Below, one piece after another: positions 10,711-31,400 of a stretch of DNA of 64,000 nucleotides. The notes beneath the pieces are model-generated. The model saw only the letters and a program-made list of their open reading frames with translations. It did not search any database and was not told the origin of the DNA. Position numbers and translations under genes: made by a program. The DNA is from Anaerolineae bacterium (lineage in GTDB: Bacteria; Chloroflexota; Anaerolineae; Promineifilales; Promineifilaceae): assembly GCA_007123775.1 (NCBI GenBank), contig SLGK01000114.1, positions 28,642-92,641 of the forward strand, in the 5' to 3' direction. Positions within the stretch are counted from its first letter, which is position 1, and each line of letters opens with the position of its first letter.

Positions 10711-13698
10711 TTATGCCATTTGTCGTTTTGCCAGGTCAGCAAACAAACCCTCTTCGTTTATGAGTTCGTCATAGGTGCCTTGTTGGACAATACGGCCGTT
10801 TTCCAACACAAAAATCTTGTCAGCCCCTTTGATCGTACTCAGCCGGTGGGCAATAACAACCCGCGTTGCTTGCAAATCCTCCAGGCTTTGGCTGACAATG
10901 GCCTGGGTATGATTATCCAGAGCGCTGGTAGCCTCATCGAAAAAGAGGATGCGGGGCCGGTTAACGATGGCGCGGGCAATCAGTAAACGCTGGCGCTGGC
11001 CACCGGACAGGGTGCCGCCGCCATTACTCAGCATTGTGTGCATCCCCATGGGCATCTTTTTGAGGTCATCGGCCATGCCTGCCATCTCAGCCGCACGCCA
11101 GGCGTCGTCTACAGTCAAGGGCAGCGAACCAACGATGTTGGTAAAGATGTCACCGGCCATTATCTTGCCATTTTGCAAGACTACGCCTAACTGCCGCCGC
11201 ACCTCACGTATATCAAGGCTGTCCAGGTCGCGCCCGTCGTAATAGATGCTGCCAGATAACGGCCGTTCAAAGCCCAACAGCAGGCGGAACAAGGTGGATT
11301 TACCGGAACCCGAAGCCCCAACCAGTGCTACATAATCACCGGGGTTAATCTCCAGCGACACATCTCTCAGAATAATAGGGCCGTCTTCGGTGTACCGGAA
11401 AGAAAGGTTGGCTACTTCGATCCCGCCTACCAGTTCACCCGGATGCTCTTTGAGTTCATTTATCTCTGGTGTGGCCTGCAAAATGGGGCGTGCCCGTTCA
11501 TACATGGGAATAATGTTGAGAAAGGTCAAAAAGGCCCCACTTAAGGTCAAAACAGCCATCGTAAATTGGATAAAAGCCGTGTTAAACGCCAGAAATTGAC
11601 CAATCGTCAACGCTTCTCTGCCCGACAGAATGACCACAGTAAAAATAACCATCGTCATAATGACCTGATAACCGGCATTGAAAGCCTGCAAGTTATTGGA
11701 GACATCACGCGCCTGGTAACTAACCTGCTTGGCCTGGCTAAATTCGGCCGCCCAGGTGGCAAAGGCACGTCCCTCAGCCGCGGCCGCCCGAAACTTGGAG
11801 ATACCTTCAATGGCTTGCAAGACAATCCCCGATATTTTGCCTTGCAAGTGGACCAACTGCCGGTAAAAGGCCATCTGACGCTGGCCGGCGTAAATCATGG
11901 CGGCCACGGATACGACAACCAATCCCGTCGCGGTCCACGCCAGGCCACTGTGATAGTAGAAAAGAAGGAAGAAGCTGAAAATCGAGAAGATGCCGGCCAA
12001 CAGTGCACTCATAACCGTCCCGGAAAGAATCTGTTGAATACGGCGAATACCCATGATGCGATTTCCCAAATCACCAGAGGTATAGTCACGGAAAAATGAA
12101 ACCGGCAGGCTCAGCACCCGCTGCCACACGGCCGCTTCCAGGTCAGCCCCCATCCGTTCTTGCAAGCGTAGCAAAGCCAAGTTTTGGACCACCTGGAAAA
12201 GACCCATAGCCACCACGATAGCCATTAGAAAGAAACCAATTTGAAGAAGCTGTAGGCGTTCTGCCTGGGGAATAACCTGGTCAAAAATAATACCGGTAGC
12301 GATAGGAATGAGCATACCCAAGATACCACCAGCTACACCAGCCAACAAAACTAGACGCAGGTCGCTGGTATCCCCGGCCATCCCAAATTTGAGCAGTTCC
12401 CAGGCACCAATAGGCTTGTTGGGCAAGGCGCGGTAAAACATGTGGGCAAAGGGTCTGAGGGTCTCTGCCGTTTCTGCGGTGACTTTTTGGTAATGACGTT
12501 TGCCGGGATCGTATAGTTGGTATCCTTTTTTGTAAGGAATCAACACGACCGGCTGCTCTGTTTCTTCCCAAAATCCGAGCAGGGGGCCATTGTCTTGCCG
12601 CCACCATTCTCCCTTCAGAACCACCTGCCGCGTTTGAAAATGAGAGGCCCGTGCAATATCAGACAGGGCAAGTGTCTCGTCTTGTTGCGCTTGTTTAGAC
12701 GGCGCAGCTATCTCAATCCCCAACTGTTGGCCTATGATGCGACAGGCCTGCAACAGCAAGTTATCATCACTGCTCTCAGGTGTAATGGGCGTGGCCGGTG
12801 ATAGGAAAGGGCCTGCCAGGCGTGTAAGCGCTTCGCTGACGATTGATTGATCGGATTCCTGTTTGCTTCGCAGCCGTTCTATATCTTGTTGGCGCGTTTG
12901 CTCTAGCCACTGGGCAATGTGTTGCAGCATGTGGCGATGGAAATCGGCCAGATCAGGCCAGGGTATTGCCTGGGTCAAAAAGGTTGGGGTGTCGATGAGA
13001 TCAAGCTGACTGTTTTCGGCCGTTTGAATCCAGGCCCGTTCAGAAATCGGCCAGCGCATATTGCCGTTTAAGAGGGGCAACTGGTTGTTGCTGCCCATAA
13101 AACGGGAATGGCCTTGTTGGTGTTTGACCCACAGCACACCACGCCGGGCGCAAACAGTGCTGGCCGCTTCGATAGCAATAGCAGAGCCAGCATTTAGGCG
13201 GCGGCAATCTTTGGGTGGTAAGCTGTCTAGCAGGCAGGTTGAGAGCTGATGCACCCAGTTGTCGATCAACGTTGTTACCGGCTGCCGAAAATCATTATCC
13301 TGAGACAAATAGTATAGGCGCTCGGTTGACAGGCGCAGCAGTCTGGTTTGTTTGCCACCAACCAGCAACAACCCTACGTTATGCTGTTCAGAAAGCAGGT
13401 CCATGCCAAAAATAGCTTGACCAGCCTCGACGCGAAACAAATGGGTTCTGGCCCCAACTGCCTGACCCTCGTGCAAAGTGACGGCAAAAAGATCGGCCCA
13501 GCCGGTATAAACAACCCAGCAGTCAGCCGGATTATCCAGCAGGATAGGGTTGTTGCCGCCGCTTTCCACCATTTGTGCTTCTTTATAGCGCAGGTGGAGG
13601 AGGAACAGTTCCTCTACGGGCATTCCATCTGGTTGTTCATCATCGGGCATAGCTTGGATGCCTGATTGGTCCGTTTGGCTTACTCGTTGCGTTTTCAT
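10711..13698 (-). CDS. NHLM bacteriocin system ABC transporter, second ATP-binding/permease protein
   Basis: 995 residues. The first 400 residues or so are a soluble region typical of the second ABC protein of NHLM microcin/bacteriocin systems and unlike C39. A six-helix exporter membrane domain (about 430-745) follows, then an ATPase domain with Walker A LVGASGSGKST (Lys800), signature LSGGQRQRL and Walker B ILFFDEATSALD. No Cys protease motif is present. It overlaps the stop of the C39-ABC gene by 4 bases (ATGA at 13695-13698), so the two are co-translated and may form a heterodimeric exporter for the matured peptide (inference). Confidence 0.88.
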   Translation of the reverse strand: MKTQRVSQTDQSGIQAMPDDEQPDGMPVEELFLLHLRYKEAQMVESGGNNPILLDNPADCWVVYTGWADLFAVTLHEGQAVGARTHLFRVEAGQAIFGMDLLSEQHNVGLLLVGGKQTRLLRLSTERLYYLSQDNDFRQPVTTLIDNWVHQLSTCLLDSLPPKDCRRLNAGSAIAIEAASTVCARRGVLWVKHQQGHSRFMGSNNQLPLLNGNMRWPISERAWIQTAENSQLDLIDTPTFLTQAIPWPDLADFHRHMLQHIAQWLEQTRQQDIERLRSKQESDQSIVSEALTRLAGPFLSPATPITPESSDDNLLLQACRIIGQQLGIEIAAPSKQAQQDETLALSDIARASHFQTRQVVLKGEWWRQDNGPLLGFWEETEQPVVLIPYKKGYQLYDPGKRHYQKVTAETAETLRPFAHMFYRALPNKPIGAWELLKFGMAGDTSDLRLVLLAGVAGGILGMLIPIATGIIFDQVIPQAERLQLLQIGFFLMAIVVAMGLFQVVQNLALLRLQERMGADLEAAVWQRVLSLPVSFFRDYTSGDLGNRIMGIRRIQQILSGTVMSALLAGIFSIFSFFLLFYYHSGLAWTATGLVVVSVAAMIYAGQRQMAFYRQLVHLQGKISGIVLQAIEGISKFRAAAAEGRAFATWAAEFSQAKQVSYQARDVSNNLQAFNAGYQVIMTMVIFTVVILSGREALTIGQFLAFNTAFIQFTMAVLTLSGAFLTFLNIIPMYERARPILQATPEINELKEHPGELVGGIEVANLSFRYTEDGPIILRDVSLEINPGDYVALVGASGSGKSTLFRLLLGFERPLSGSIYYDGRDLDSLDIREVRRQLGVVLQNGKIMAGDIFTNIVGSLPLTVDDAWRAAEMAGMADDLKKMPMGMHTMLSNGGGTLSGGQRQRLLIARAIVNRPRILFFDEATSALDNHTQAIVSQSLEDLQATRVVIAHRLSTIKGADKIFVLENGRIVQQGTYDELINEEGLFADLAKRQMA

Positions 13699-15990: not shown

Positions 15991-16779
15991 TTAACGAACG
16001 GGTAGTACCAGTTCGACCGGACGCTGTGTACCCATTTGAACGGTAGCAGAGGCAATCGTGCCAATGAGACCAGGGGGCAGTTGGTCGGCAGCGGTCTCTG
16101 TTTCCAGGAAGACACGCACCTCAATGGGTTGCTCTGCTTGAAGCAGGGTATGGCCCAAAGCGTGGCTCCCCAGCAAGTTGTTGATTTGCTGGGTGGAAAC
16201 AGGGAATTCGCTAATCGTAGCAATGGTGCCTGACAGTGGGCCGATATTGGCCGCCGAGACAGGCTCGACGACGACGGGCATGCCGGCTTCGAGCTGACGG
16301 GCCTGGTCTGGCGAGAGGTAGAGGACGGCTTCTAAGCGCACGTCTGGCCCCACAAATTGGAGATTAGCCAGTGAATCCCCTGCCTGAACCATTTGACCAA
16401 CAGCAGCGCTTAGGCTCAGAATACGGCCGTCGTACAAACTGCGTACCGGGACAGGTGTATCCTGACCGAGGGGCAATATTTCAGCAATGGTCTGATTTTT
16501 TGTGACGGTCTGGCCGGGTTCTACATGCCAGGCATATAGTTGACCGTTGTCTACGCCGATGATGTTTTTGATGCCGCCGGTGGTGATGAGGGCGGCCGGG
16601 GCTGTCTGTTGTAATGGTATGTACCCAAAGATGCCCCAGTAAACGGCCGTAGCCACCAATATTGTCAGGCCCAGAAAGGCCAGCCAGCTTCGAGGGCTGG
16701 TGACACGCATCAATAAATCAAGCTGCTCCGGGGATGAGAGCCGGTCAAGAGCTACTTTACGAAAAATGGCAGAATTCAT
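15991..16779 (-). CDS. NHLM bacteriocin system secretion protein, HlyD family
   Basis: 262 residues, short for an HlyD-type adaptor. One membrane helix (about 33-53, LAFLGLTILVATAVYWGIFG) anchors it. The rest is a lipoyl/beta-barrel periplasmic adaptor (WHVEPGQTVTKNQTIAEI; LYLSPDQARQLEAGMPVVV) without a long coiled-coil arm, as in the NHLM subtype. It should join the ABC exporter to the cell envelope. AGGAGG sits 7 bases before the ATG. It is the second gene of the divergent minus-strand export operon. Confidence 0.85.
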   Translation of the reverse strand: MNSAIFRKVALDRLSSPEQLDLLMRVTSPRSWLAFLGLTILVATAVYWGIFGYIPLQQTAPAALITTGGIKNIIGVDNGQLYAWHVEPGQTVTKNQTIAEILPLGQDTPVPVRSLYDGRILSLSAAVGQMVQAGDSLANLQFVGPDVRLEAVLYLSPDQARQLEAGMPVVVEPVSAANIGPLSGTIATISEFPVSTQQINNLLGSHALGHTLLQAEQPIEVRVFLETETAADQLPPGLIGTIASATVQMGTQRPVELVLPVR

Positions 16780-16797
16780 ACTTTCCTCCTTTTACCA

Positions 16798-17979: not shown

Positions 17980-18386
17980 GATTCCTCTGCCTAGGCATTA
18001 TGAAGAATGATTACGCTATTTAGTATCAGTAGATCGAAACCCGAACCGAGCTTACCCAGGAAAGCTCACTGGTCATTTCGATCTACTGAGTATAGAGAAT
18101 CGATTACCTTATCTATATTCTTCTGAAAGCCCATCATTTTCAATGATGTAATAGACACGAATTGATCAGGTCAATAGACTAGTTTTATTAGGCTGTAAGT
18201 CACGGTGATATGGATGAGAGTAATATAATCCAATATGTTATACGTTTGTTACAACACATGATTTATTGCACAGGCAAAATATTGCTCACACCTCATGTAA
18301 ATCACGCATGTACCAATTATAATCTAATCAGTCATTGCAATAGGGTAGTGACATAATCCACTTTTATCATAATAAAGGAGAGTAAA
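17980..18386. promoter_or_regulatory. Divergent control region between lanA and the export operon
   Basis: An AT-rich 407-base region between genes transcribed away from each other. It contains a family A palindrome (18025-18089). On the plus strand it has TATAAT at 18318-18323 without a good -35 hexamer, which suits activator-dependent transcription. TTGC-ACAG-GCAA at 18266-18277 is a dyad centred about 50 bases upstream of that -10. AAAGGAGAG precedes the lanA ATG. Base composition differs sharply from the GC-rich flanks and no ACGGCCGT motif occurs here. Confidence 0.5.
18025..18089. repeat. Palindromic repeat, family A, copy 2
   Basis: ATCAGTAGATCGAA (18025-18038) and TTCGATCTACTGA (18077-18089) repeat the arms of the element at 7472-7560; the last base of the right arm differs (G for T). 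The interior is shorter and unrelated in sequence. It lies in the export-operon leader. Confidence 0.75.
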
Positions 18387-18728
18387 ATGTCTACACATGT
18401 TGGTGATCGCTTTGTGGCGCAAGAGCAAGTTTATATCAAAGCTGCAACTGATGAGAGTTTCCGCAACGCACTTTTTGAGGATGCCCATCAAGCCCTCGCT
18501 GCCGAAGGGATTAATATTCCTGCTGATACTGAAGTTGAGCTTGTTTCAGAGAATCCAAGCAATGGCATCAAGTTTATTGTCCCAGAACTACTCGTTTCAG
18601 AAATTGAACTAACAGACGAAGAGTTAGAAGTCGTTGCCGGTGGTGCTGCTTCACCAGATTGTACCGTACTCAGTTGTTGGACCTGGTCCTGCATCATTAA
18701 CTCAAGTCGAGCGCAACTTCAAGAGTAG
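18387..18728 (+). CDS. lanA: NHLP-leader lanthipeptide precursor
   Basis: A 113-residue precursor. Residues 1-86 are a nitrile-hydratase-like leader peptide (NHLP): FRNALFEDAHQALAAEGINI, then VELVSENPS, then LTDEELEVVAGG, ending in a double glycine for C39 cleavage. The predicted core (87-113) has Cys at core positions 6, 11 and 16, exactly five apart, with Ser3, Thr7, Ser10, Thr13, Ser15, Ser20 and Ser21 as possible dehydration sites. Ser3-Cys6, Thr7-Cys11 and Thr13-Cys16 rings are plausible but not proven. Two Trp flank Thr13. A LanM, a C39 exporter and an HlyD adaptor are all nearby. AAGGAG precedes the start. Confidence 0.9.
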   Translation: MSTHVGDRFVAQEQVYIKAATDESFRNALFEDAHQALAAEGINIPADTEVELVSENPSNGIKFIVPELLVSEIELTDEELEVVAGGAASPDCTVLSCWTWSCIINSSRAQLQE

Positions 18729-18770
18729 CGATTCTAGTCAAAATGTAAATAGTGCAATGCTTAATAAGAT

Positions 18771-18799
18771 GAGCCATCGAGAGATGGCTCATTTTAGTT
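18771..18799 (+). terminator. Intrinsic terminator after lanA
   Basis: GAGCCATC (18771-18778), loop GAGA, GATGGCTC (18783-18790), then ATTTTAGTTCTTTT. The 8-bp stem and T-rich tail form a moderate terminator between lanA and the next plus-strand gene. It would lower expression of that gene relative to the precursor, a common layout for peptide loci. Confidence 0.75.
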
Positions 18800-18839
18800 C
18801 TTTTGTTTAGCTGTTCAGCTTTGCTTTAAAGGAGAATAC

Positions 18840-19859
18840 ATGTCAATCCATACACCTGAATCTAACGGGATTTTTCGTCATATACTGTACAGTTATCGAA
18901 TTGGCCGTAAGAAGACCGCCATGAAAATGACTGTTGAAGACGGTGATAGGGAAAAACAGGCTATGAAGTGGCTTATTTCGCAGACTTCTGTTTCCCAATC
19001 ACAAATGGATGCACTTACTCATATATCGCGATGGCGTGCGATTGGGTTAAGGCGTGCCCATCAGTCTGATATAGAGGGTGCTGAGAAAGTTATGCATGTC
19101 GCTAGAAGTAAACTAGACCTAGTTGGCTTACCTCAGCTTGCTTATCTTTTTGGAAATACTTTCCAGCTTGCAGCGGAAGCTTATATAGATTACCGGTTAC
19201 ATGAATACGAAGAGGCCAACAAGAAGATGCAATGGTCATTAGAAATCAATAACCAGTTAGTTAAACTGGGATGTACGCCTCTTGAGCCGCGGCGGGTACA
19301 TTTATGCCGTAACAAAGTGCGCGTTGATGCCTTTGCACAGCGTTATGATGCCGCCATGTCATTGGCTGCTAAAGAACTTAGTTATCTAATGGGAAACTAT
19401 GTCAACGGAAATTTCAAGGCCGACTTAAATCGACAACTCTTGAATGAGATGACCCGTGAAGAACGTTGGGCCTTATGTTACCAGCTCTTTAAAGAGGTAG
19501 CTTTGATTCTTACCAAAGTTGATGATGCAACCGGCTCAAAATTGCTAACTATTCTCATTTCTGAATTTGGCAGTCTGGACAAACTGGAAGATGAGCAGTT
19601 TGTGTTTGAACCCGCGCTTAAGTGGCTAAGACTCAAACAAACCTATTATTTTGACTCAAGAGATCGTTACCTGGAAGCGGCAGCAGACTTTATCAAAGAA
19701 GGGGAAGGCGAATGGCCTGTGTTATGGCAAGCTGTACGATTTGATATGTACAATTCTTGTCAGTCACTTGATCATCCTGAAGCTTATGAATTGCAGCAGA
19801 TAATTCGAAGAGACGTGATGAATTCGACCGATTTACCTAAACCGCTTCAACCAGCATGA
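18840..19859 (+). CDS. Unknown helical protein of the lanthipeptide locus
   Basis: 339 residues, no family recognised. It is predicted to be almost all alpha-helical, with TPR-like helix pairs (for example AYIDYRLHEYEEANKKMQWSL and YDAAMSLAAKELSYLMGNY), no signal peptide and no membrane helix. AAAGGAGAATAC precedes the ATG. It lies between the precursor and the convergent LanM and is shut off by a strong terminator. Possible roles are immunity, peptide binding or regulation. The base composition is AT-rich like lanA and LanM and unlike the flanks, suggesting the three arrived together. Confidence 0.7.
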   Translation: MSIHTPESNGIFRHILYSYRIGRKKTAMKMTVEDGDREKQAMKWLISQTSVSQSQMDALTHISRWRAIGLRRAHQSDIEGAEKVMHVARSKLDLVGLPQLAYLFGNTFQLAAEAYIDYRLHEYEEANKKMQWSLEINNQLVKLGCTPLEPRRVHLCRNKVRVDAFAQRYDAAMSLAAKELSYLMGNYVNGNFKADLNRQLLNEMTREERWALCYQLFKEVALILTKVDDATGSKLLTILISEFGSLDKLEDEQFVFEPALKWLRLKQTYYFDSRDRYLEAAADFIKEGEGEWPVLWQAVRFDMYNSCQSLDHPEAYELQQIIRRDVMNSTDLPKPLQPA

Positions 19860-19888
19860 AATACACTCACTTCCCATTAAGATCAAGA

Positions 19889-19914
19889 AAAGCACCTTCA
19901 CAAGGTGCTTTTTT
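19889..19914. terminator. Bidirectional terminator between convergent genes
   Basis: AAAGCACCTT (19889-19898) and AAGGTGCTTT (19902-19911) form a 10-bp stem with a 3-base loop, followed by T on the plus strand and, read on the minus strand, also by a short T-run. It separates the 339-residue gene from LanM. Confidence 0.85.
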
Positions 19915-19939
19915 GAACCTCTTGCAAAAAAACACAGGA

Positions 19940-22900
19940 TTATTGGATAGCCAAAATATCTGGTAGGGTTGGATCAGCAAGATAAAGAAGACTATAACCA
20001 ATTCCCGCGAGACCTTGGAACATACCTAGACAGTAGGTCAGCGGGAATTTTGAGGATACTGTATAATGGCCACGAGAATATTTGCGCTTAATAACTAATT
20101 GTAACCGGTTACGAAGTTGGGCTTGTAATTCAGAGTCTTTGATAGTGCGGGCTAATGACTGCAGTATGAAGAGACGCCCGAGATTTCCGCAACATAAATG
20201 ATCGACACCCCTAATTGGTTGTGACAGTGTAAAATCTACTGCGCGTTGAATGTCACTGCGAACCAAATCTGAATCCAGGACTGCTAATCCGGCTGCCCGG
20301 CCAATTGCAATGCCGGGGGCACCATTACACCAACTGCTGTTACTAACGTAGTTGATTTCATTCGGGTTTCTGAGATCGGGCCAATTGCCGTATTCGGTAG
20401 AAAACGTTGCGTGTTCATAGGCAATGCCTTCTTTAGCCGCTTCCAGATACCGATTATCCCGCGTCACGGCATAAAGTCTCACCAAAGCAAGTATAATTCC
20501 CGCAGCGCCATGCGACAAACCGGTACCCAGTTGCCCGGCTACGGTTGGCCAGGCGCGAAGACCATCATAGGGTGATGGTTGCCTCGTTGCCAGTAAATGC
20601 TCGCCACAATGTCGAGCAAGTGACAGTACGCGGTTACTATTGTTCAGATTATGCAGAGATAAAAGGGCTAGAGCTGTTCCAGCCACACCACGTAGTAAAT
20701 CAATATGAGTATCTTGATATATATATTCAGGTGAAATCAGGTCTGCAAACTTCTCAGCGGAATCGAGCAAGTCTTTATGTGCAGATAAGCGGGCCAATGT
20801 AGCAAACGAATAGACCAGACTGCTGGCTCCACGAGAAGTGCCCAGTTCTTCTGCACGATAAAACTTACTCAATTGACGTTTATTCTTTGCATCAAGTTCA
20901 TTAAGCCGCTGGGTGATCCCCTTAATAACTTTGTTGGTGACAAGTTCTTCAATTTCTGAATTGCCTGTTACTTTCGCATACGCCATCAGAAATACGGCAA
21001 CCCCAGATAAACCTTCATAGAAACCATGTTTCAGGGGACCTAGTTGATAACGTCCTATTTCGTCAAAATACTGCATGCCGTACCAATTCAAGTAAGAATT
21101 GCTATCAGTTTTAGCGAGCTGAAGAATGAAATCGGCAATCTGTTTGGCTTCACCTAACAATAGTTGCTTCGAAATATCTACAGATGATTTTGTATCAAAA
21201 TCTAAGGAAGAATCTGTAGCATACTCATCAGACAGACCGTGGAAGTCCATCCTGTTTTGAGATGACAGTGCCGTTTTGACAATATCAAGCTGCTGTGCCA
21301 AATCATCTGCTCCGAGTCTGTGCAAACGCTGCAAAACGTTGTCTAGACTAGGAGAGGCAAAATAATTATCTATCGTATCTCCCGTACTGGTGTATAAGAC
21401 AGTATCAATAGGACGGGAGGCAAAAAATGGTATGTCGCCTTGCAACATGTCATGCACTTCTGCACGCTGTATCAACCACTCGGCCGGCTGTTCTTTTAGT
21501 GACATAAAGGCTATTGCTGTACGATCTAGCTCCAGGCTGGTTGCAATGCCATGTTGCAAGAACTGAGGATGAACTGTTCGTTGCAACAGTTTGCCATAAA
21601 CGTCTGTATTGCGAAAGAGAAATCTCGTTGGATATGCTGCCAATCTTGCTAGAAGTTCCGTCTGAATTAATTGCTGTCTATTGTCAACCAGAAAGTGATA
21701 CATCTGCTCAAACCCCCAACAGATTTCGGCGACATATTTTGATGACGGCTGTATTTCATCGTGTAACTGAACAACATTGGTTCCCAGTGTTGTCTCTTTC
21801 TCCAAAATTGTTCGCTTCATTGTATCCTGGTTAATATTTTTCCATCCCGGCATTTTTGTTTTGCCCGTTTTCATTAAACCAAGCCCGCTTAGATCATTTT
21901 TTGTGTCTAAGTTTTGGCTAGGAAGTAATCCTGTTGTGATTACCGTATCAAAGGAAAGGTTATGAAATTCAGACAAACCATTTTTACCCATTTCTTTTGG
22001 AAGGGGGGCCATCAATGTCTCTAAATCAAAAAGAACAGGGTATTCGCCATGGACAATCACATTCTCATGATGACCATCGCTACCCCCTAGAACGTACCAA
22101 AGGCATAACAAAGTGCCAGCTCGTTGATAATACTGTTTTACATCTCCGATTGTTCCACAGGGCTTTTGCTCAATAAATTCCACCCAGCCATATTCCGTTC
22201 GGGCAATCACTTGCCACTTTTTGAAGTCAAGGGGAAATCCTTGTTCTTCAATCCAATCAACAATTGCAAAATAGGCTGCATCTATTGCAATAGGTTTTGG
22301 TTTGTAAACAACTCGTGTTTGATCATCAATTGTTAAAATATGAACCGTACGACCGCGATTGTGTGGATCAGATAACTCCAGCCTGAAGTCAGTTACACAG
22401 TGACAACCACCAAACTTCTTGGTTATATCGTCCCAATCTATTTCAAGTCTTTGTAAAAATTCCGCATAGCTTTCTTGCCATATCTCAATGCTTTGCCCCC
22501 AAAATTTGGCCAGCACCGGGTAGTTTAGAAAGATTTGATGCAAACCATCATCTAGTAAATAGTCAATAAATGATTGGTAGATAGCATCTCCGTTTTGCTC
22601 TGGCAGCTTTGCATCTTTAGCTTGTATGCGAAATTGATCAAATATGGCGAAAAACACAAATTCGCTTAAACTTCCCAGTTTCTTCGATAGGCTGTAAGCT
22701 AATTTTGCCTGTGCCTTGTCGCTCAACCGTGACCAGATGAAATCGACTTTATCAGACAATTCGCGCATTGCTCGATTGACAATGGGATAGAATATATGTT
22801 GAAAAGGAACTGGGTCATTTCCTAATTCGATCATCAGATAATCATCGATTAACGGTTTACACTCTAGGCTAAGCTCTGTTAAGTAGTTGTCTAAAATTGA

Positions 22901-23173
22901 CATCCACCTGCATTCGTTTACCGGTCCATTCCATACCATATCGCCAAGAAGTTGCCTGGCCTCATCTTCTGTAAAATTGTCCCAAGCTAATCGCTTGTGT
23001 AGTGCGTCCTGGTTATGGGTACCCAAGGCCTTGCGCCATTGAGATAAGATCTGTTCAATCTTTTCAGATGATTGTGACGATATGGGCTGGTACCTACTAT
23101 CTGTTGCCCGTTCAATGAATGTTGCTGACTGACCAATAATTAGAGCTTGTTCTTGTTGGTTAAAAAATGACAT
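19940..23173 (-). CDS. lanM: Class II lanthipeptide synthetase LanM, CCG type
   Basis: About 1077 residues from the ATG at 23173; an in-frame TTG at 23215 would add 14. The N-terminal dehydratase domain phosphorylates and eliminates Ser/Thr (RVVYKPKPIAID; GGSDGHHENVIV; LFDLETLM). The C-terminal LanC-like cyclase has GTGLSHGAAG, SSWCNGAPG with Cys949 and HLCCGNLG with Cys994-Cys995. Cys-Cys-Gly in place of Cys-His-Gly gives a three-cysteine zinc site, the type seen in ProcM, which is associated with fast cyclisation and relaxed substrate use. It lies downstream of the MinD-like gene, with a long dyad between them. AT-rich, without the ACGGCCGT motif. Confidence 0.94.
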   Translation of the reverse strand: MSFFNQQEQALIIGQSATFIERATDSRYQPISSQSSEKIEQILSQWRKALGTHNQDALHKRLAWDNFTEDEARQLLGDMVWNGPVNECRWMSILDNYLTELSLECKPLIDDYLMIELGNDPVPFQHIFYPIVNRAMRELSDKVDFIWSRLSDKAQAKLAYSLSKKLGSLSEFVFFAIFDQFRIQAKDAKLPEQNGDAIYQSFIDYLLDDGLHQIFLNYPVLAKFWGQSIEIWQESYAEFLQRLEIDWDDITKKFGGCHCVTDFRLELSDPHNRGRTVHILTIDDQTRVVYKPKPIAIDAAYFAIVDWIEEQGFPLDFKKWQVIARTEYGWVEFIEQKPCGTIGDVKQYYQRAGTLLCLWYVLGGSDGHHENVIVHGEYPVLFDLETLMAPLPKEMGKNGLSEFHNLSFDTVITTGLLPSQNLDTKNDLSGLGLMKTGKTKMPGWKNINQDTMKRTILEKETTLGTNVVQLHDEIQPSSKYVAEICWGFEQMYHFLVDNRQQLIQTELLARLAAYPTRFLFRNTDVYGKLLQRTVHPQFLQHGIATSLELDRTAIAFMSLKEQPAEWLIQRAEVHDMLQGDIPFFASRPIDTVLYTSTGDTIDNYFASPSLDNVLQRLHRLGADDLAQQLDIVKTALSSQNRMDFHGLSDEYATDSSLDFDTKSSVDISKQLLLGEAKQIADFILQLAKTDSNSYLNWYGMQYFDEIGRYQLGPLKHGFYEGLSGVAVFLMAYAKVTGNSEIEELVTNKVIKGITQRLNELDAKNKRQLSKFYRAEELGTSRGASSLVYSFATLARLSAHKDLLDSAEKFADLISPEYIYQDTHIDLLRGVAGTALALLSLHNLNNSNRVLSLARHCGEHLLATRQPSPYDGLRAWPTVAGQLGTGLSHGAAGIILALVRLYAVTRDNRYLEAAKEGIAYEHATFSTEYGNWPDLRNPNEINYVSNSSWCNGAPGIAIGRAAGLAVLDSDLVRSDIQRAVDFTLSQPIRGVDHLCCGNLGRLFILQSLARTIKDSELQAQLRNRLQLVIKRKYSRGHYTVSSKFPLTYCLGMFQGLAGIGYSLLYLADPTLPDILAIQ

Positions 23174-23236
23174 GGTTAACTGGCTGTTCCTTTTCGTGAT
23201 GAAGCAACTCCTCAATCAAGCGGGGTGAAAGCCATT

Positions 23237-25783: not shown

Positions 25784-26053
25784 TTAATTGAAAAGTGTAT
25801 CTAGCAAGCCAACACTGCTGCGTTTAGGTTTAGGCTTGCCCTGCATTTGAACTTGATATTTTCTATCGCTATCTATATTTAACCGTGATTCTTTAACCAT
25901 CTTGTAGACTACACCTTCCAGCTCATCTACCGGAATTCTGGTCAAGCCGGCAATTTCTTGCAAAGTCAGCTGGGGTTTTCGTATCAAACACCGAATAACA
26001 TCTTGCTCCGTATTTGTAACAGTTAATAAATCCAGTGGAGACAACATAGCCAT
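25784..26053 (-). CDS. Small winged-helix protein
   Basis: 89 residues from the ATG at 26053, which has AAGGAG 11 bases upstream. It is similar over its whole length to the N-terminus of the next protein: both begin M-x-x-LSPxDLL and continue EQxxxRCLxRxPxLT, so they are a duplication. The C-terminus is basic (GKPKPKRSS). It ends one base before the start of the larger gene. Probably a DNA- or protein-binding modulator of the same circuit (inference). Confidence 0.65.
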   Translation of the reverse strand: MAMLSPLDLLTVTNTEQDVIRCLIRKPQLTLQEIAGLTRIPVDELEGVVYKMVKESRLNIDSDRKYQVQMQGKPKPKRSSVGLLDTLFN

Positions 26054-26218
26054 AACGTGCTTCTCCTTCACTTATAATTGAGCTCCGTTAATTAACATTC
26101 TCGTGCAAGTACTACAATACTAATTATCGGCAAACGTAACAAAGATTACCTGATATAATAATCATCTTTCGGTTGTGATTCTTTATACAAGAGTGGTGTG
26201 ACTTTGACCCTATGCTCG

Positions 26219-26926
26219 TTAACGATAGACAATCCGGTTGATTCTGGCCCAAGCCGCTGCCTCTGCTCTAGATCGGATCCAGGGGATTTTGCGATACGTG
26301 TTGTGAATATGGGATTGAACGGTATTGGGAGCTATTTGTAGCTGCCGGGCAATTTCCTCGTCTGTCAAACCTTTAGCTAACAACTTAATCACATTTAATT
26401 CCGTCGGGCTCAAATCTTGATATAGTTCAGGGATATAGCGAAGCAGTGTATTTTGAACTTGCTGATTCAATACCGTTTGCCCAGCAACCACGGCCCGAAT
26501 ACCATCTAGGACAGTAGCTAGCAGGTCACTTTTTAGAAGATACCCCCTAACGCCAGCAGCCAACATACTCCAAATATACTGCTTGTCCTGATAACTGCTA
26601 AAAACGAGAATCTGGGGATGCCCGTTGATTGATTCCTGCTGTCTTAACAGATTTAGCTGGCGGGCCACCTGAATACCCCCCAACCGCGACAGGTTAATGT
26701 CGAGTACAATTACCTGTGGAGATAAGGTTTGAGCCAACCGCATGGCTTCTTGGCCGTCACCTGTTTCTCCGAGGACAACAATATCTTGCTGCCTTTCGAT
26801 TTCCTGCCGCAAACCTTCGCGGATTATCTGGTGCGCGTCAGCAAGCAAGACACCAATTGTGTTGACGGTATGAAAACGCGGATCATGGCCTAAACCTGAA
26901 CGTGCCGGCAGCAAGGATTCAATCAT
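26219..26926 (-). CDS. NarL/LuxR-type response regulator, second copy
   Basis: 235 residues from the ATG at 26926; a TTG at 26992 would add 22 N-terminal residues. The receiver domain (about 24-145) has phosphoacceptor Asp76 (VIVLDINLS) and the Lys of YLLKSD, but the usual acidic pair is Asp30-Ala31, so metal binding may be weaker. The C-terminal LuxR helix-turn-helix (about 165-230) reads LSPTELNVIKLLAKGLTDEEIARQLQIA. It lies after the ComA-like gene and may be a target-specific or decoy regulator of the same kinase. Confidence 0.85.
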   Translation of the reverse strand: MIESLLPARSGLGHDPRFHTVNTIGVLLADAHQIIREGLRQEIERQQDIVVLGETGDGQEAMRLAQTLSPQVIVLDINLSRLGGIQVARQLNLLRQQESINGHPQILVFSSYQDKQYIWSMLAAGVRGYLLKSDLLATVLDGIRAVVAGQTVLNQQVQNTLLRYIPELYQDLSPTELNVIKLLAKGLTDEEIARQLQIAPNTVQSHIHNTYRKIPWIRSRAEAAAWARINRIVYR

Positions 26927-27089
26927 ACCGGCTATTGTCCCCACTTTTTTCAGGAAGTGTTGAAGAGACCAACCTATTTTGATTGTGACCAAGTCACTAG
27001 TCGATTGTGACTTTGAGCTTACTTTCTTCTGGCGCGACTGGATTGAAGATTGTTTAAAGCCTGTTCATTGGTTTCGTCTAGCTTTTGGG

Positions 27090-27788
27090 TTATTCAATTT
27101 CAACAATCCGATTCTCCCAGGCCCAGGCTACTGCCTCAGAACGTGTGCGAACATTTGGCAGCTTTTTATATATGTTCATGACATGGTTTTTGACCGTACC
27201 GACGGCGATTATCAAAGCCTCAGCGATTTCGTCGTTGGTGTAACCTTTGGCCATCAAACGCAGCACTTCTAACTCTCGCTCGCTCAGACTATGTTTCGGT
27301 TCGTCGCGGCGGGTCAAGAGCAACTTTTGCACCGGCAGGCTCAAGGCTGGTTCTCCTTTCGCCACCTGCCGGATTCCGACGACAATGCGGTCTGCTGATT
27401 CATCTTTCAATAAGTAACCTTTCGCGCCGGCCGCAAACAGACTATAGACATATTCAGGCTCACAATATGCGCTGAGAATCAAGATATGCGGTGGCCAGGG
27501 AGCTGAGGTATCAGTCCGATCATTTGCATCAACCGTCATGTGGGTAATCTTTTCGGCCACATCGGTCCCTTGTAGCCCTGGCATATTGATGTCCAGAAGG
27601 AGAACATCCGGACGTAGCGACTGGACTATTTGCAATGCTTGTTCTCCGTCTGTAGCTTCCCCAATCACCTCTATATCGGCGTGCCGTTCCAGCGCACTGC
27701 GAATGCCGGAACGCACAACATGATGGTCATCGGCCAAAATTATACGGATTCTTCTGGCGTCTGTTTTGGATGCTTCATCTACGGTCAT
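27090..27788 (-). CDS. comA: ComA-like NarL/LuxR response regulator
   Basis: 232 residues. Receiver domain about 14-140 with the acidic pair Asp20-Asp21, phosphoacceptor Asp66 (VLLLDINMPG) and Lys in YLLKDES. LuxR helix-turn-helix about 160-228 (LSERELEVLRLMAKGYTNDEIAEAL). GGAGG sits 9 bases before the ATG. It follows the ComP-like kinase by 24 bases, as comA follows comP in Bacillus. It should bind promoters when phosphorylated; the lanA and comX promoters are the obvious candidates (inference). The symbol is by analogy. Confidence 0.85.
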   Translation of the reverse strand: MTVDEASKTDARRIRIILADDHHVVRSGIRSALERHADIEVIGEATDGEQALQIVQSLRPDVLLLDINMPGLQGTDVAEKITHMTVDANDRTDTSAPWPPHILILSAYCEPEYVYSLFAAGAKGYLLKDESADRIVVGIRQVAKGEPALSLPVQKLLLTRRDEPKHSLSERELEVLRLMAKGYTNDEIAEALIIAVGTVKNHVMNIYKKLPNVRTRSEAVAWAWENRIVEIE

Positions 27789-27812
27789 AATTGTCCTCCA
27801 AAATGATGTGGT

Positions 27813-30206
27813 TTAAACAGGAATAGAAACTTCCAGTCGAGTGCCAAGAGCCGGAGCAGAGACTATATCAAATGTACCCTGTAACAGTTCAACCCTTTCC
27901 CGCATCCCTACCAATCCAAAATGATCGTTGTTCATCAGCCTACCTAAACGCTGTGGAACCTCAAAGCCTGTCCCGTTGTCGCCAATAGTCAGCCTGACCC
28001 GTTCTGGTTGAATAGTCAGGTCAATATCAATTTGGGTAGCAGATGCGTGTTTGCGAATGTTGGATAATGCTTCGCCCGTGCAGCGGAAAAGACAAAGGGC
28101 AGTATCCTCATCAATGGGCAGCTTGCGATCTCCCTCTATGTTCAGATTCACGCCAATGCTGTGGTCCATTTCAAAGCGATTTACCAAAGAGCGAATAGCA
28201 GGTATCAACCCCAGGTCTAGAGCCGCCGGCCGCAAATCCTGGCATAAGTGGCGAGTTGTTTCAATGAGCGCACCGATTTCGCTTTCTAAGTCTAGTCTTT
28301 GCTGCCCATTGTCAGTAGAGGCTGTCTGATAATGCACAGCAGTCGCCTCAATCTGGGCTGTATGGTACTTCAAACCAACCAGTTGTTGAATGATCTGGTC
28401 GTGCAGCTCACGGGCAATACGTTTTCTTTCTTCCTCCCGTGTTCTGAAAATTTCCTTTTGGTATTGCTCGTTTTCATTAACTTTTTCTTCCAATTCGCCA
28501 ATAAGCTGGGCATTCTGGAAGATAACGCTGGCTTGACGAGACACAACGTCCAGAATTTCCAAGTCTTCGGCGTTAAATAAATCACCACCATATTTTGGAC
28601 CTAGGAGCAGGAGGCCAAGCGATTGTTTTAGCCCTTGTATTGGTATCCACAAGCGAACTGAATCGCTTTCAATCAGTTGTGCTTCTTCGTCAGTTAAATC
28701 CCAATCAGCTGCTTTGTGCCGAATTTGCTGGTTATTTACTGGCTGGGTTTGTTGTTTCAAGAAACGGATGATACTTGGCAATCCGTCTGAGTACAGCGTG
28801 TCGAGCAACAAAGGATTTTCGGTGTTTTCAGACGCATAGATACTGGTGGGTGTATCGATGTCTTCTTGCCACAGTAAATAGACCCAGTTGACGCGCATCG
28901 TTTTTTGTACGCTCATGGTCAACGTTTGGGCAATGGTTTCAATACCTGTGGTTGATTCTAGTGTATGTGTTACTTGGCTGACAACTGTGGGGTAGTCATA
29001 CCATCCACCATACATCAGGTAATCAACCAGGTTTTGTAAGCGACGGTAAAGTGGATTGTAAACGACAACAAGTGTCATGACCATTAGCAAGTTTACAAGC
29101 GGGTTAGTCAGTACATTGTCATCTGACAAGGATTGAAGCAGATAGGAAATGGCAAAATATAAGACGCAAAGAGTACCAATTACGTAAACGGCCGTTGCAC
29201 TGCGGCTGATATAACGCTCCAATCGGATAAACTGATAGCGTCTGATGGCATAGCCGTAACCTAAAGGCAACACAATCAAAAACAGCAAGGAAAATGGTAT
29301 GGGCAGCAACGCCTCGCCAAATAGAATAGCGGGAAAAATTGACAATGTTAGCAAAGGCACACCGGCCACGAAACCACACAGTGCAACCATACCAACCTGC
29401 CGTTTGGTAACGGGCGAGTAACTGTTACGATACGCTCTGACCAATAACCAAAGTACCAGAATAAGGCCAACTAACAACCACAGGTTTAGGGTGAGGGCAT
29501 ATGTCGTTGCTAAGATGCCAGAGGGTGTTGACTCAAGGGCCAAAACCAATCTCAAAGTAACACCCAACAACGTGATGCCATAGACACCAATAATCGGCTT
29601 GCTTGTTTGCCAGAGAGTCTGGGCTACCGGAAAGATCAGGTGAAAATGAATCGCCAATCCTATGGCCCACCAGGTAGCAATGTGAGAAAAGTGGCCGGCC
29701 CAGGCCTGACTCGTTACAGCCCCTAAGGCAAGGCTTGCTCCCAATGCCTGGCACCACAAGAAGAAGAGAATATTTTGCTTGGTAAACGTCGGCGACAGCA
29801 AAATGACGGCCAGGCCAACCAGCCAAAACGCTAGGGCAACAAAATTGAGCGAGAGACGAACGATTAAGATAAAAGGTGGCGCTGGTTCTGTATAGAGCGT
29901 TTCAATGATAAGTCGCTCACCAGCACGCTCTACCTCAAGTTGTAAGATATCTCCATGCTGCCACTGGTAATAGGGAAAACTGCTGTCAGCTAAGAGAACA
30001 CCGTCAATACGAAGGACCTGATCGTCAACCAGCAGGTCTGAGTTCTGATGGGCATAATAGACCACGCCATTGTCTGCCCATAAGGCACCGAGGTCTGGTT
30101 GGATAATTACTTGCCAGGCCGACCAAATTATGACAAACAGCGACACGGCCGTTACAAACGCAAGGCAAATTTGAGCTGCAATTGTCTTTTGGTAGGTTCT
30201 GAACAT
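27813..30206 (-). CDS. comP: ComP-like membrane sensor histidine kinase
   Basis: 797 residues with the layout of Bacillus ComP. A first membrane helix (about 10-32) is followed by an outside PDZ-like segment (about 45-105, DDQVLRIDGVLL with QHGDILQLEV), a multi-helix membrane domain (about 110-365), a GAF-like domain (about 410-560), a HisKA_3 dimerisation helix with His602 in RIARELHDQIIQQL, and an HATPase domain (about 690-795) with GDNGTGFEV and HFGLVGMRERVELL. It should sense an extracellular signal and phosphorylate the ComA-like protein. It is flanked by comQ-like and comA-like genes in one direction. ACGGCCGT at 29188 and 30145 shows it is resident DNA. Confidence 0.88.
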   Translation of the reverse strand: MFRTYQKTIAAQICLAFVTAVSLFVIIWSAWQVIIQPDLGALWADNGVVYYAHQNSDLLVDDQVLRIDGVLLADSSFPYYQWQHGDILQLEVERAGERLIIETLYTEPAPPFILIVRLSLNFVALAFWLVGLAVILLSPTFTKQNILFFLWCQALGASLALGAVTSQAWAGHFSHIATWWAIGLAIHFHLIFPVAQTLWQTSKPIIGVYGITLLGVTLRLVLALESTPSGILATTYALTLNLWLLVGLILVLWLLVRAYRNSYSPVTKRQVGMVALCGFVAGVPLLTLSIFPAILFGEALLPIPFSLLFLIVLPLGYGYAIRRYQFIRLERYISRSATAVYVIGTLCVLYFAISYLLQSLSDDNVLTNPLVNLLMVMTLVVVYNPLYRRLQNLVDYLMYGGWYDYPTVVSQVTHTLESTTGIETIAQTLTMSVQKTMRVNWVYLLWQEDIDTPTSIYASENTENPLLLDTLYSDGLPSIIRFLKQQTQPVNNQQIRHKAADWDLTDEEAQLIESDSVRLWIPIQGLKQSLGLLLLGPKYGGDLFNAEDLEILDVVSRQASVIFQNAQLIGELEEKVNENEQYQKEIFRTREEERKRIARELHDQIIQQLVGLKYHTAQIEATAVHYQTASTDNGQQRLDLESEIGALIETTRHLCQDLRPAALDLGLIPAIRSLVNRFEMDHSIGVNLNIEGDRKLPIDEDTALCLFRCTGEALSNIRKHASATQIDIDLTIQPERVRLTIGDNGTGFEVPQRLGRLMNNDHFGLVGMRERVELLQGTFDIVSAPALGTRLEVSIPV

Positions 30207-30230
30207 TGCCCCGATATTTGTTGGGTAACA

Positions 30231-31163
30231 CTAACCTGCCCTTGGTACAGATTGTGGTGCGATATGGTCCAATATACGCTGCAACTGAGCTTTGATGTCT
30301 GGTGCGAGCTGCATTGTTTGCACAAGCTGGTATGCTTCCTGCCGGATAAGTGACATTTGGGTCACTAAGTAAACTACAGCACCACTACCAATAATCAGCC
30401 GATGGGCCAACTCTGCCTTTTCTGATTCAGAAACGGCCGTATCAAGCAACGCCAGTAAAGCTTCTTTTTGGGCCTGTGGCAGCACGGTTACTGCATAACC
30501 AACAGGTAAACTATGCTTTGCAGCAGCAAATAAATCCTCTTTTGAAGCCAAATCAACTAGATCATCATGAATTTGGTCCAACAAACCCAGTTTGTGACCA
30601 AATTGACGATATAAGTTTAACTCCTGATGGTCAGCACAGGCAACATAGCCACCAGCCCAACAAACCAAGCCTAGACTGGTACCAGATTTTGTCTCAGCGA
30701 TTTGCCAACTTTTCTCCAGCGAGGGTGACGATAGGGACAGGTCTTCATGTTGACCAGCACAAGTCTGTAACAAGCCAACATGAAAGCCTTCACGAATTGC
30801 TTGAGCCGATTCCACAGCTACCCCGCTTGCTTCTAGCTGACTGAGCAAGTAGCCGGCTGTGAAGATAAGCCCCGTGGACACGTTTAAGTCCACGGGCATG
30901 GTTCCCGTTTCGGCGTTGCCATCCTCAATATCGTCGAGTATGCGGGCCGCGTGCCTTAGCAAATGCCACGCTGACACAATTGGCATAACCTGTTGGCGAC
31001 TACCGCCATTTGCCTCACATAGCAGTATTGGTAGTGCCGACAGTTTATGTCCAGCTTCGTTATTTGGTTGGGTCAGTTTGCAACTTCGTCTTAGGGCATC
31101 TGCGTAAGCTTGATTGATATGAGGATTAGACCATAGTGGGTCGACCAGTGAAGGTTCAATCAT
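30231..31163 (-). CDS. comQ: ComQ-like isoprenyl transferase (polyprenyl synthetase fold)
   Basis: 310 residues, an all-helical polyprenyl-synthetase fold. The first aspartate motif DDIED is at 77-81 (HAARILDDIED), and the second is DQIHDD at 196-201 (KLGLLDQIHDDLVDL). In a chain-length synthase this family makes prenyl diphosphates. Next to a ComX-like peptide gene, 18 bases downstream of it and followed by a ComP-like kinase, it is best read as ComQ, which attaches a farnesyl or geranyl group to the Trp of pro-ComX and processes it. A quinone- or carotenoid-type prenyl synthase is the alternative, but no such pathway genes are near. Confidence 0.82.
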   Translation of the reverse strand: MIEPSLVDPLWSNPHINQAYADALRRSCKLTQPNNEAGHKLSALPILLCEANGGSRQQVMPIVSAWHLLRHAARILDDIEDGNAETGTMPVDLNVSTGLIFTAGYLLSQLEASGVAVESAQAIREGFHVGLLQTCAGQHEDLSLSSPSLEKSWQIAETKSGTSLGLVCWAGGYVACADHQELNLYRQFGHKLGLLDQIHDDLVDLASKEDLFAAAKHSLPVGYAVTVLPQAQKEALLALLDTAVSESEKAELAHRLIIGSGAVVYLVTQMSLIRQEAYQLVQTMQLAPDIKAQLQRILDHIAPQSVPRAG

Positions 31164-31181
31164 GTAACCATTCTACTCAGC

Positions 31182-31400
31182 TTACGGAACCCACTGCTGA
31201 TCCGGTGACGGGTGGGGGAAGTAATCCTTTGCAAGCAGATCAAAGATGGTTTCTCCGTCTTGGATGAGGGCCAATATTGCTTGAACTTCTGCTGGGGCAA
31301 TATTGAATCGGTCAATAATTACTTGTCCATTTTGGACGATCTCAGCCAGCAAAACAGGGTTGGAGACAATCTGATACACAACTTCATGCAAAGTATTCAT
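31182..31400 (-). CDS. comX: ComX-like pheromone precursor
   Basis: 72 residues. The N-terminal 50 residues fit the ComX prepeptide pattern: VVYQIVSNPVLLAEIVQNG, then IDRFNIAPAEVQAILALIQDG, matching Bacillus ComX (NYPEALKKLKN...IGFDVQETETIIKAYND). The C-terminus SPDQQWVP places Trp70 third from the end, as the modified Trp is in ComX of B. subtilis 168 (RQWGD). AGGAGG-like CGGAGG precedes the ATG. It is the first gene of the com-like run. After processing by the ComQ-like enzyme, the C-terminal decapeptide or so would be the isoprenylated signal (inference). Confidence 0.88.
   Translation of the reverse strand: MNTLHEVVYQIVSNPVLLAEIVQNGQVIIDRFNIAPAEVQAILALIQDGETIFDLLAKDYFPHPSPDQQWVP

What the first reader, a model, noticed from the sequence alone, without database searches (positions are those of the whole stretch)
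27090..31400. ComX-ComQ-ComP-ComA-like quorum-sensing locus outside Firmicutes
Four adjacent same-strand genes match each part of ComQXPA: a 72-residue ComX-like prepeptide with a C-terminal Trp, a polyprenyl-synthetase-fold ComQ-like enzyme, a ComP-architecture kinase (TM helix, outside PDZ-like segment, multi-helix membrane domain, GAF, HisKA_3) and a LuxR-type regulator. ComQXPA is known as an isoprenyl-peptide pheromone system of Bacillus and relatives. The flanks look Chloroflexota-like, and the ACGGCCGT motif inside comP and comQ shows the genes are resident. Gene order is X-Q-P-A instead of Q-X-P-A.
Basis: partly seen in the sequence, partly recalled or inferred. Interest (0 to 1): 0.95.

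Follow-up and report, generated by a model that had tools for sequence, protein, structure and literature searches.

The report
Prenyl-peptide signalling locus in Chloroflexota
A Chloroflexota genome carries four adjacent genes related to the Bacillus ComQXPA system, so the cell likely makes a short peptide whose tryptophan would be tagged with an isoprenoid and sensed as a population signal, a kind of system that the published census found only in Firmicutes.

Summary
Confirmed, and larger than reported. Window 27090-31400 (- strand) holds X (72 aa, ...QQWVP), Q, P and A, followed by a second LuxR-type regulator. Q groups with Bacillus ComQ, not with chain-length synthases (100/99), and lacks their IPP-binding Arg and RR motif (0 of 36 Q, 0 of 8 ComQ). 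P's membrane sensor is homologous to an annotated Anoxybacillus ComP sensor (hhalign E 1e-11; UhpB negative). X does not match the ComX profile; 18 of 30 X-type precursors, not the window's own, match an NHLP-clan RiPP model. Trp stands near the C-terminus in 57 of 60 X homologues and in no leader, while cores vary. Q occurs in at least 29 Chloroflexota genomes, in 27 with P adjacent. Six relatives carry precursors with three or more tandem Trp cores. A palindrome, AAGTCAY-N9-RTGACTT, precedes X and the second regulator. In three of four genomes read that far, a lanthipeptide cluster with NHLP exporters lies downstream. Prenylation, secretion and sensing are inferred. New variant of a known kind: ComQXPA-like prenyl-peptide signalling with a different precursor type, outside Firmicutes.

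The parts
31182..31400 (-). X: 72-aa peptide precursor ending ...QQWVP
   Evidence: ORF; 2 other homologues at 86 and 82% identity; 60 proteins in the profile search, own included, 57 with Trp in the last 25 aa; leave-one-out leader HMM rank 1 of 965 ORFs
30231..31163 (-). Q: ComQ-clade prenyltransferase, predicted to prenylate the Trp of X
   Evidence: PF00348; tree with ComQ; IPP-binding Arg and RR columns lost; AlphaFold model pLDDT 89.4, Foldseek matches to isoprenyl synthases and Ord1
27813..30206 (-). P: ComP-type membrane sensor histidine kinase
   Evidence: HisKA_3, HATPase_c; sensor profile vs annotated ComP sensor hhalign prob 97.4, E 1e-11; one match of this sensor in the genome at E 1e-10
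27090..27788 (-). A: ComA-type LuxR-family response regulator
   Evidence: Response_reg + GerE; 63-75% identical at the same place in L020, L021, L022, L023, L029
26219..26992 (-). RR2: second LuxR-family response regulator; true start probably the ATG at 26926
   Evidence: Pfam; conserved downstream of A in L020, L021, L022, L029
31473..31495 (-). palindrome AAGTCAT-N9-ATGACTT, predicted regulator site 95 nt upstream of X
   Evidence: same palindrome upstream of X in L020, L021, L022
26991..27013 (-). palindrome AAGTCAC-N9-GTGACTT, predicted regulator site upstream of RR2
25784..26071 (-). 95-aa helix-turn-helix-like protein, conserved downstream gene
   Evidence: weak Pfam HTH matches; in L020, L021, L022, L029
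24097..25782 (-). cNMP-binding protein, conserved downstream gene
   Evidence: PF00027; in L020, L021, L022, L029 and L200
23315..24100 (-). MinD/ParA-family ATPase, conserved downstream gene
   Evidence: 76-80% identical in L197, L198, L199, L029, also in L200
19940..23215 (-). LanM, type 2 lanthipeptide synthetase: predicted output of the system
   Evidence: TIGR03897 E 7e-237; LanM also downstream in L197 and L198, not in L200
18387..18728 (+). lanthipeptide precursor with NHLP leader (VAGG)
   Evidence: TIGR03793 E 2.1e-16
15991..16779 (-). NHLP secretion protein (HlyD-like)
   Evidence: TIGR03794
13695..15962 (-). NHLP export ABC transporter with peptidase domain
   Evidence: TIGR03796 E 0
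10711..13698 (-). NHLP export ABC transporter 2
   Evidence: TIGR03797 E 1.8e-288

Best explanation
The locus encodes a peptide precursor (X), a ComQ-clade enzyme (Q) predicted to prenylate the precursor's tryptophan, a ComP-type sensor kinase (P) that likely detects the released peptide, and two LuxR-type response regulators (A, RR2) that would switch on the locus itself and probably the adjacent lanthipeptide cluster. Shown by sequence: gene content and order, homology of Q to ComQ and of P's sensor to a ComP sensor, the conserved Trp with variable cores, the palindromes upstream of X and RR2, and the neighbouring LanM/NHLP-export genes. Inferred: Q attaches a geranyl or farnesyl group to W70 of X; a protease and an exporter (perhaps the neighbouring NHLP exporters) release a C-terminal peptide around ...PSPDQQWVP; P binds it outside the cell and phosphorylates A and/or RR2; the regulator binds AAGTCAY-N9-RTGACTT, giving positive feedback on X and expression of the downstream genes.
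For: Q: ML tree of 46 rows splits 26 Q + 6 ComQ from 13 synthases + Ord1 at 100/99. In an alignment of 61 rows the second Arg of GGKRxRP is Arg in 15 of 16 synthase rows, 0 of 36 Q and 0 of 8 ComQ; RR after the first Asp motif is RR in 14 of 16, 0 of 36 and 0 of 8. P: sensor profile vs annotated Anoxybacillus ComP sensor, prob 97.4, E 1e-11, score 89, 309 columns, 17% identity; UhpB, UhpC and YhbE score 12-16, 50 class-preserving shuffles at most 25. Linkage: 28 of 31 Q loci readable downstream have an adjacent same-strand P, 26 of 31 a response regulator near (15 of the 28 P built the profile); X-like ORF in 30 of 36 Q loci. X: Trp in the last 25 aa in 57 of 60 proteins, none in the first 45 aa; 25 different C-terminal octamers in 34 full-length members of one subfamily; tandem Trp cores whose copies differ at 23:3, 3:0, 24:0, 4:6, 14:0 and 8:0 synonymous:nonsynonymous codons in six loci. 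Palindrome upstream of X in the four members of the nearest clade and upstream of RR2 in the window. LanM and NHLP exporters downstream in 3 of 4 genomes read that far.
Against: X of the window itself matches neither ComX nor any NHLP model. The fold does not discriminate: canonical synthases rank as high as Ord1 or higher. The window's second Asp-rich motif is intact (QIHDDLVD), so synthase activity is not excluded by that motif, and the Gln before it is also in canonical synthases. In L025 against L027 and L028 the P sensor is more conserved (0.80-0.81) than the kinase (0.59-0.60), unlike what I recall of Bacillus pherotypes. Q loci L026, L033 and L146 show no X; L134 and L145 are doubtful. 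L033 and L146 also have no P, and in L094 P is not directly downstream. The exact palindrome is absent from the other 24 of 28 X loci. G031 has no LanM in the stretch read, and no Q locus outside the window's family shows one in its fetched flanks. No dedicated protease or exporter for X was identified.
Confidence: 0.8

Rival explanations
1. X and Q make a prenylated RiPP with antimicrobial or other non-signalling role; P and A merely regulate its production in response to another cue.
For: NHLP-clan leaders belong to RiPP natural products (family descriptions); multi-core precursors are, as I recall, common among RiPP products; a lanthipeptide cluster lies next to it.
Against: The kinase beside Q carries a sensor homologous to ComP's, and its twelve best places in 146 genomes all lie beside Q; the lanthipeptide cluster has its own precursor and exporters; cores are variable behind a conserved leader, as described for ComX.
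Confidence: 0.13
2. The Anaerolineae X-Q-P modules descend from a PalXQP-like or other Trp-prenyltransferase lineage and resemble ComQXPA by shared ancestry of a wider family rather than as ComQ proper.
For: PalX is described as NHLP-type with a histidine kinase neighbour (PMC10853753), like the X family here; 24 of 26 Q in the tree form a clade of their own, beside ComQ + L150 + L151.
Against: C-terminal extension beyond the Trp abolishes PalQ activity (PMC13290415), whereas the Trp of the window's X is third from the end; the sensor of P matches ComP.
Confidence: 0.3
3. Q is an ordinary short-chain isoprenyl diphosphate synthase and X a chance ORF.
For: PF00348 fold, intact FARM and SARM in the window; GGPP synthases among the best fold matches.
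Against: Loss of the IPP-binding Arg and of RR in 36 of 36 Q, grouping with ComQ, X leader HMM rank 1 in 25 of 28 loci, Trp conserved in 57 of 60.
Confidence: 0.03

Closest known systems
ComQXPA of Bacillus subtilis and relatives (census PMC4008528)
   Same: Q of the ComQ clade, P with ComP-type sensor and HisKA_3/HATPase_c, A with Response_reg + GerE, a short precursor with a Trp near the C-terminus, variable cores, four adjacent same-strand genes
   Different: Chloroflexota, not Firmicutes; order X-Q-P-A; X not PF05952, its relatives with NHLP/Os1348-like leaders; second regulator; some relatives have tandem-core precursors; beside a LanM cluster in the window's own family
PalX-PalQ-PalP of Paenibacillus alvei (PMC10853753)
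   Same: NHLP-type precursor with a C-terminal Trp, isoprenoid-synthase-fold Trp prenyltransferase, histidine kinase neighbour
   Different: PalQ does not act on a C-terminal Trp with residues behind it; three genes; Firmicutes; PalQ forms a cluster of its own in the published network
Ord1 (PDB 9v4g-9v4j), described in PMC13290415 as farnesylating free tryptophan
   Same: fold; the Gln and Asp three residues apart that were mutated there (Q216A, D219A in the entry titles) align with Q197 and D200
   Different: keeps RR after the first Asp motif (alignment); groups with synthases in the tree, beside the long IspB branch
ChrPC P domain (PMC13290415)
   Same: trans-IDS-like Trp prenyltransferase on a peptide
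   Different: sequence not compared here

Membership tests
ComQXPA | four adjacent same-strand genes for Q, X, P, A | tested here: met
ComQXPA | gene order Q-X-P-A | tested here: not met
   order is X-Q-P-A
ComQXPA | ComQ: PF00348 protein of the ComQ clade | tested here: met
   PF00348; Q + ComQ clade 100/99
ComQXPA | ComX: match to PF05952 | tested here: not met
   no match for X; control ComX of Anoxybacillus 2.7e-20; 2 of 30 X match weakly, best E 0.05
ComQXPA | ComX: 52-73 residues with a Trp close to the C-terminus | tested here: met
   72 aa, Trp third from the end; conserved in 57 of 60
ComQXPA | ComP: PF07730 + PF02518 behind a multi-helix membrane sensor | tested here: met
   sensor homology to a ComP
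ComQXPA | ComA: PF00072 + PF00196 | tested here: met
ComQXPA | Trp of X prenylated by Q and sensed by P | not testable with these tools
   needs mass spectrometry and a reporter assay
PalXQP | NHLP-type leader of X | tested here: inconclusive
   no NHLP model matches the window's X, 18 of 30 X do; the window's leader is found by the HMM built from the others
PalXQP | Trp as the very last residue | tested here: not met
   ...QWVP
Isoprenyl diphosphate synthase (chain-length) | IPP-binding GGKRxRP Arg and RR after FARM | tested here: not met

NHLP/Os1348 RiPP precursor clan | match of the window's X to NF038399 or TIGR04509 | tested here: not met
   none for the window's X; 18 and 13 of the 30 X

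The most novel reading that the evidence does not exclude
Chloroflexota use a widespread family of prenyl-tryptophan peptide pheromones that is the wider kin of ComQXPA: precursors are NHLP-clan RiPPs, some with three to six or more tandem pheromone cores, of which Bacillus ComX is a shrunken relative, and in the window's own family the module governs lanthipeptide production.
Probability: 0.5. Interest if true: 0.92.

Novelty: new variant of a known kind. Interest (0 to 1): 0.82.

Why it matters
To my knowledge (recalled) ComQXPA is the one described quorum-sensing system with an isoprenylated peptide, and the 2014 census found none outside Firmicutes. If this holds, prenyl-peptide signalling extends to Chloroflexota, for which the listings of my searches showed no such system. 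The link to NHLP leaders offers an origin for ComX, and variable or tandem cores give ready-made substrates for testing how Trp prenyltransferases choose their site.

Tried and rejected
The phylum-wide profile search with 17 Q was useless as a census: 328 of 400 genomes matched because canonical synthases score too; only G403, G476 and G149 were looked at further, and G149 is canonical. The rule 'small ORF with Trp before the gene' alone is weak: 31 of 35 Q loci but also 80 of 225 control genes (p 2e-9), hence the leader HMM. There X ranked second, not first, in L023, L035 and L138, and in the pooled set of 6,045 ORFs the best ORF outside the X list often scored better than the left-out X. With the full HMM the best such ORFs were second X-like ORFs in L138 and L034 and the window's lanthipeptide precursor. 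In the own-genome search with up to 3 mismatches the longer palindrome pattern gave 30 hits, and 22 read backwards, so no regulon was claimed; the three exact palindromes elsewhere in 146 genomes (G002, G005, G020) lie beside no Q. PF05952 across 60 genomes gave 0 over cut-off, but no control genome, Bacillus subtilis included, was over it either, so that search cannot exclude ComX; one of its weak hits (G104) falls inside the X ORF of L031. Row IDS_L003own was a mis-cut fragment. Rows left out: Q_L145, Q_L146, Q_L094, Q_L028, the Priestia row, two ComQ and two IDS rows. Rows then left out: L003own, Acaryochloris, Q_L139, Q_L138, Q_L027, Q_L130, Q_L136, Q_L035 (long branches or near copies). 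The Acaryochloris plasmid protein had grouped on the Q/ComQ side. The L150 row is a 236-aa fragment; one search warns of odd composition in the six ComQ and L151 and of the long IspB and Ord1 branches. L141, L142, L144 and L147 were recognised as canonical synthases and not counted as Q loci; five badly cut or ComQ-like 'IDS' rows (L057, L059, L062, L071, L076) were dropped, and the regular expression there missed or misplaced the first Asp motif in a few Q (L026, L132, L138, L139, L140), hence the column count. A lanthipeptide link for all loci was tested and rejected.

X sequences were chosen by eye from ORF lists; the leave-one-out test is the check on that choice. The profile was built from X that all carry the Trp, and its 60 proteins include the window's own X and other rows of the profile; P0078 counts as having Trp although its tail looks out of frame.
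Full report
WHAT IS THERE. Pfam gives PF00348 for Q, HisKA_3 + HATPase_c + GAF below cut-off for P, Response_reg + GerE for A, and only a weak Tex_N match (E 0.034, below cut-off) for X. A fifth gene, a second LuxR-type response regulator (RR2, 26219-26992), follows and is conserved at the same place in four relatives. The Trp of X is third from the C-terminus (...QQWVP).

WHERE IT LIVES. The genome is a 5.6-Mb assembly. Two genomes of the same family have contigs of the same lengths as contigs of the MAGs 'Ardenticatenaceae bacterium CFX1' and 'Anaerolineae bacterium CHL1'; Ardenticatenaceae is Chloroflexota. Some X homologues are named from 'Candidatus Promineifilaceae', 'Ardenticatenaceae' and 'Anaerolineae'.

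HOW COMMON. Q at E <= 1e-20 is in 15 of 148 related genomes, own included. With the Q of locus L025 as query, 22 of 396 genomes of the class match at E <= 1e-33; below that, canonical synthases (L141, L142) mix with further Q (L035, L143). Adding two genomes elsewhere in the phylum (G403, G476) and G644, at least 29 different Chloroflexota genomes carry it, 27 of them with P directly downstream. Two further hits are on MAG contigs labelled Deltaproteobacteria (L092, 3.3 kb) and Terriglobia (L098, 42.7 kb, Q cut short by a stop); misbinning cannot be excluded. Of 31 Q loci with at least 900 nt of readable downstream sequence, 28 have an adjacent same-strand P with the same sensor, and 26 a response regulator nearby (15 of these 28 P, the window's included, built that profile). 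An X-like ORF was found in 30 of 36 Q loci; one of the other six (L028) has no readable upstream sequence. Some genomes hold several loci (G076 four).

Q IS COMQ-LIKE. A careful ML tree of 46 proteins splits 26 Q and 6 ComQ from 13 synthases and Ord1 with 100/99 support; two Chloroflexota loci (L150, L151) group with Bacillus ComQ itself (99/95), the other 24 Q form one clade (100/99). In an alignment of 61 rows, the last Arg of GGKRxRP is Arg in 15 of 16 synthase rows but in 0 of 36 Q and 0 of 8 ComQ; RR after the first Asp motif is in 14 of 16, 0 of 36 and 0 of 8; the Lys of GGKRxRP is in 15 of 16, 3 of 36 and 0 of 8 (one synthase row without them is the Acaryochloris protein). D77, D81, N94, Q138, K159, Q197 and D201 are invariant over 17 Q. 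The AlphaFold model has mean pLDDT 89.4; its Foldseek list mixes GGPP synthases and Ord1, the free-Trp farnesyltransferase, and VIA-align puts GGPP synthases first, so fold alone does not decide. The second Asp-rich motif is intact in the window (DDLVD), unlike the ComQ rows.

P IS COMP-LIKE. As a reference I took an annotated comQXPA locus on an Anoxybacillus plasmid, found by tblastn with a Chloroflexota Q. The profile of the P sensor (residues 1-410) aligns to that ComP sensor at prob 97.4, E 1e-11, score 89 over 309 columns at 17% identity; E. coli UhpB, UhpC and YhbE score 12-16 and 50 class-preserving shuffles at most 25. PDZ_2 matches 7 of 15 P at E <= 0.05, and the Anoxybacillus ComP has an N-terminal PDZ match just below Pfam's cut-off. 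In 146 related genomes the sensor matches in 28 at E <= 1e-10; the best twelve places, to 5e-32, all lie beside Q, and 4 of the other 20 do.

X IS A TRP PEPTIDE PRECURSOR. The single-sequence search found only two other homologues, both ending in QQWVP. The profile search gave 60 proteins, own included: 57 have Trp in the last 25 residues and none has Trp in the first 45; the three without any Trp are short or have an unrelated tail. In the largest subfamily (34 full-length members) mean pairwise identity is 0.69-0.84 per ten columns over columns 1-60 and 0.54 over columns 61-70, with 25 different C-terminal octamers around the Trp. A leader HMM built without the locus in question and without near relatives ranks X first among the ORFs of its locus in 25 of 28 loci, including first of 965 in the window. 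NCBIfam's Os1348 NHLP-clan model matches 18 of 30 X and TIGR04509 13 of 30; Pfam Frankia_peptide 12 and ComX 2, weakly; the window's X matches none of them. The leader profile aligns to the Anoxybacillus ComX with score 21.9, against at most 13.2 in 200 shuffles, though at a probability of only 53%. This hints that ComX is itself a reduced NHLP-clan leader peptide; it rests on one ComX.

TANDEM CORES. In six relatives the precursor carries repeated Trp cores behind one leader: GPFGWNLPG (4), GPNGPWGWQF (4), GPNGPWDWQF (5), GPNGPWGWQF-like (3), GPQEAWAVSP (3) and GPFPGWQG (six before a run of N in L128, five of them matched by the pattern, and five more after the run in another frame). Copies differ at 23:3, 3:0, 24:0, 4:6, 14:0 and 8:0 synonymous:nonsynonymous codons, so in five of six the peptide is kept while the DNA drifts. 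L034 and L138 have a second X-like ORF each.

REGULATION. Upstream of X the palindrome AAGTCAT-N9-ATGACTT stands at -95 in the window, -187 in L020, -124 in L021 and -293 in L022; a version with both arms changed in step (AAGTCAC-N9-GTGACTT) precedes RR2 in the window. In 146 genomes the exact palindrome occurs 8 times, 5 of them at these loci; the pattern read backwards occurs 6 times. It is not found in the other 24 X loci. I infer autoregulation by A or RR2.

OUTPUT. Downstream of RR2 the same row (HTH protein, cNMP-binding protein, MinD-like ATPase) continues in L020, L021, L022 and L029 (MinD of L020 and L022 is read in L197 and L199), and the last two are in G031 too (L200). Four genomes could be read beyond: the window, G040 and G044 have a LanM lanthipeptide synthetase and NHLP exporters there, with VAGG precursors; G031 has exporter-like matches but no LanM in 33 kb. 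G024 has a LanM on the other, upstream side (L022:374-3709); its contig ends soon after MinD, as does that of G010. The downstream LanMs of G040 and G044 are only 27-29% identical to the window's. No Q locus outside this family shows LanM in the stretches fetched, so the lanthipeptide output is a proposal for the window's family only. A 2025 study (PMC12715929, passages read) reports comX near class II lanthipeptide clusters in 22 genomes, a parallel association.

LITERATURE. The 2014 census (PMC4008528; [quoted passage not shown] PMC8895600 (passages) states that Chloroflexi contain the ComP-ComA kinase-regulator pair. PalXQP (PMC10853753, passages and section 2.1) and the 2026 review PMC13290415 (passages and section 2.4) describe Trp prenyltransferases; a word search of both main texts finds no 'chloroflex'. 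PMC12715784 (passages) concerns other peptide prenyltransferases. The listings of searches show no report of this system (one search lists 20 of 462 papers, one search lists 20 of 56; most listed papers were not opened); the held library lacks most subscription papers.

VERDICT. Homology of Q and P, the Trp-core precursor and the linkage are shown; prenylation, export, sensing and the lanthipeptide output are inferred. As a member of ComQXPA it fails two tested features (PF05952, gene order) and meets the other tested ones; it most likely works like ComQXPA.

Noticed in passing
window 10711-23215: Class II lanthipeptide cluster (LanM, NHLP-leader precursor 18387-18728, NHLP HlyD and two ABC exporters) directly downstream of the signalling module; also downstream in two relatives, but not in a third (G031).
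   Followed up: partly
L092:1331-1594, L035:6729-7019, L128-L131: Precursors with three or more tandem Trp cores, most copies differing silently.
   Followed up: partly
L034 and L138: A second X-like ORF in the locus.
   Followed up: no
L197:1555-3075 and L198:16817-18328: A gene of about 500 aa with a membrane-sensor-like start stands between the cNMP-binding and MinD genes in relatives (also L199, L029) but not in the window.
   Followed up: no
window, 79 sites: ACGGCCGT is about 64-fold over-represented in the window (79 against 1.2 expected).
   Followed up: no
L166:1270-2217 (Acaryochloris plasmid): A polyprenyl-synthetase-family protein without the synthase RR motif that fell on the ComQ/Q side of the quick tree.
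   Followed up: no
L148 (Anoxybacillus plasmid): comQXPA lies between lantibiotic-type genes and a sporulation killing factor gene cluster.
   Followed up: no
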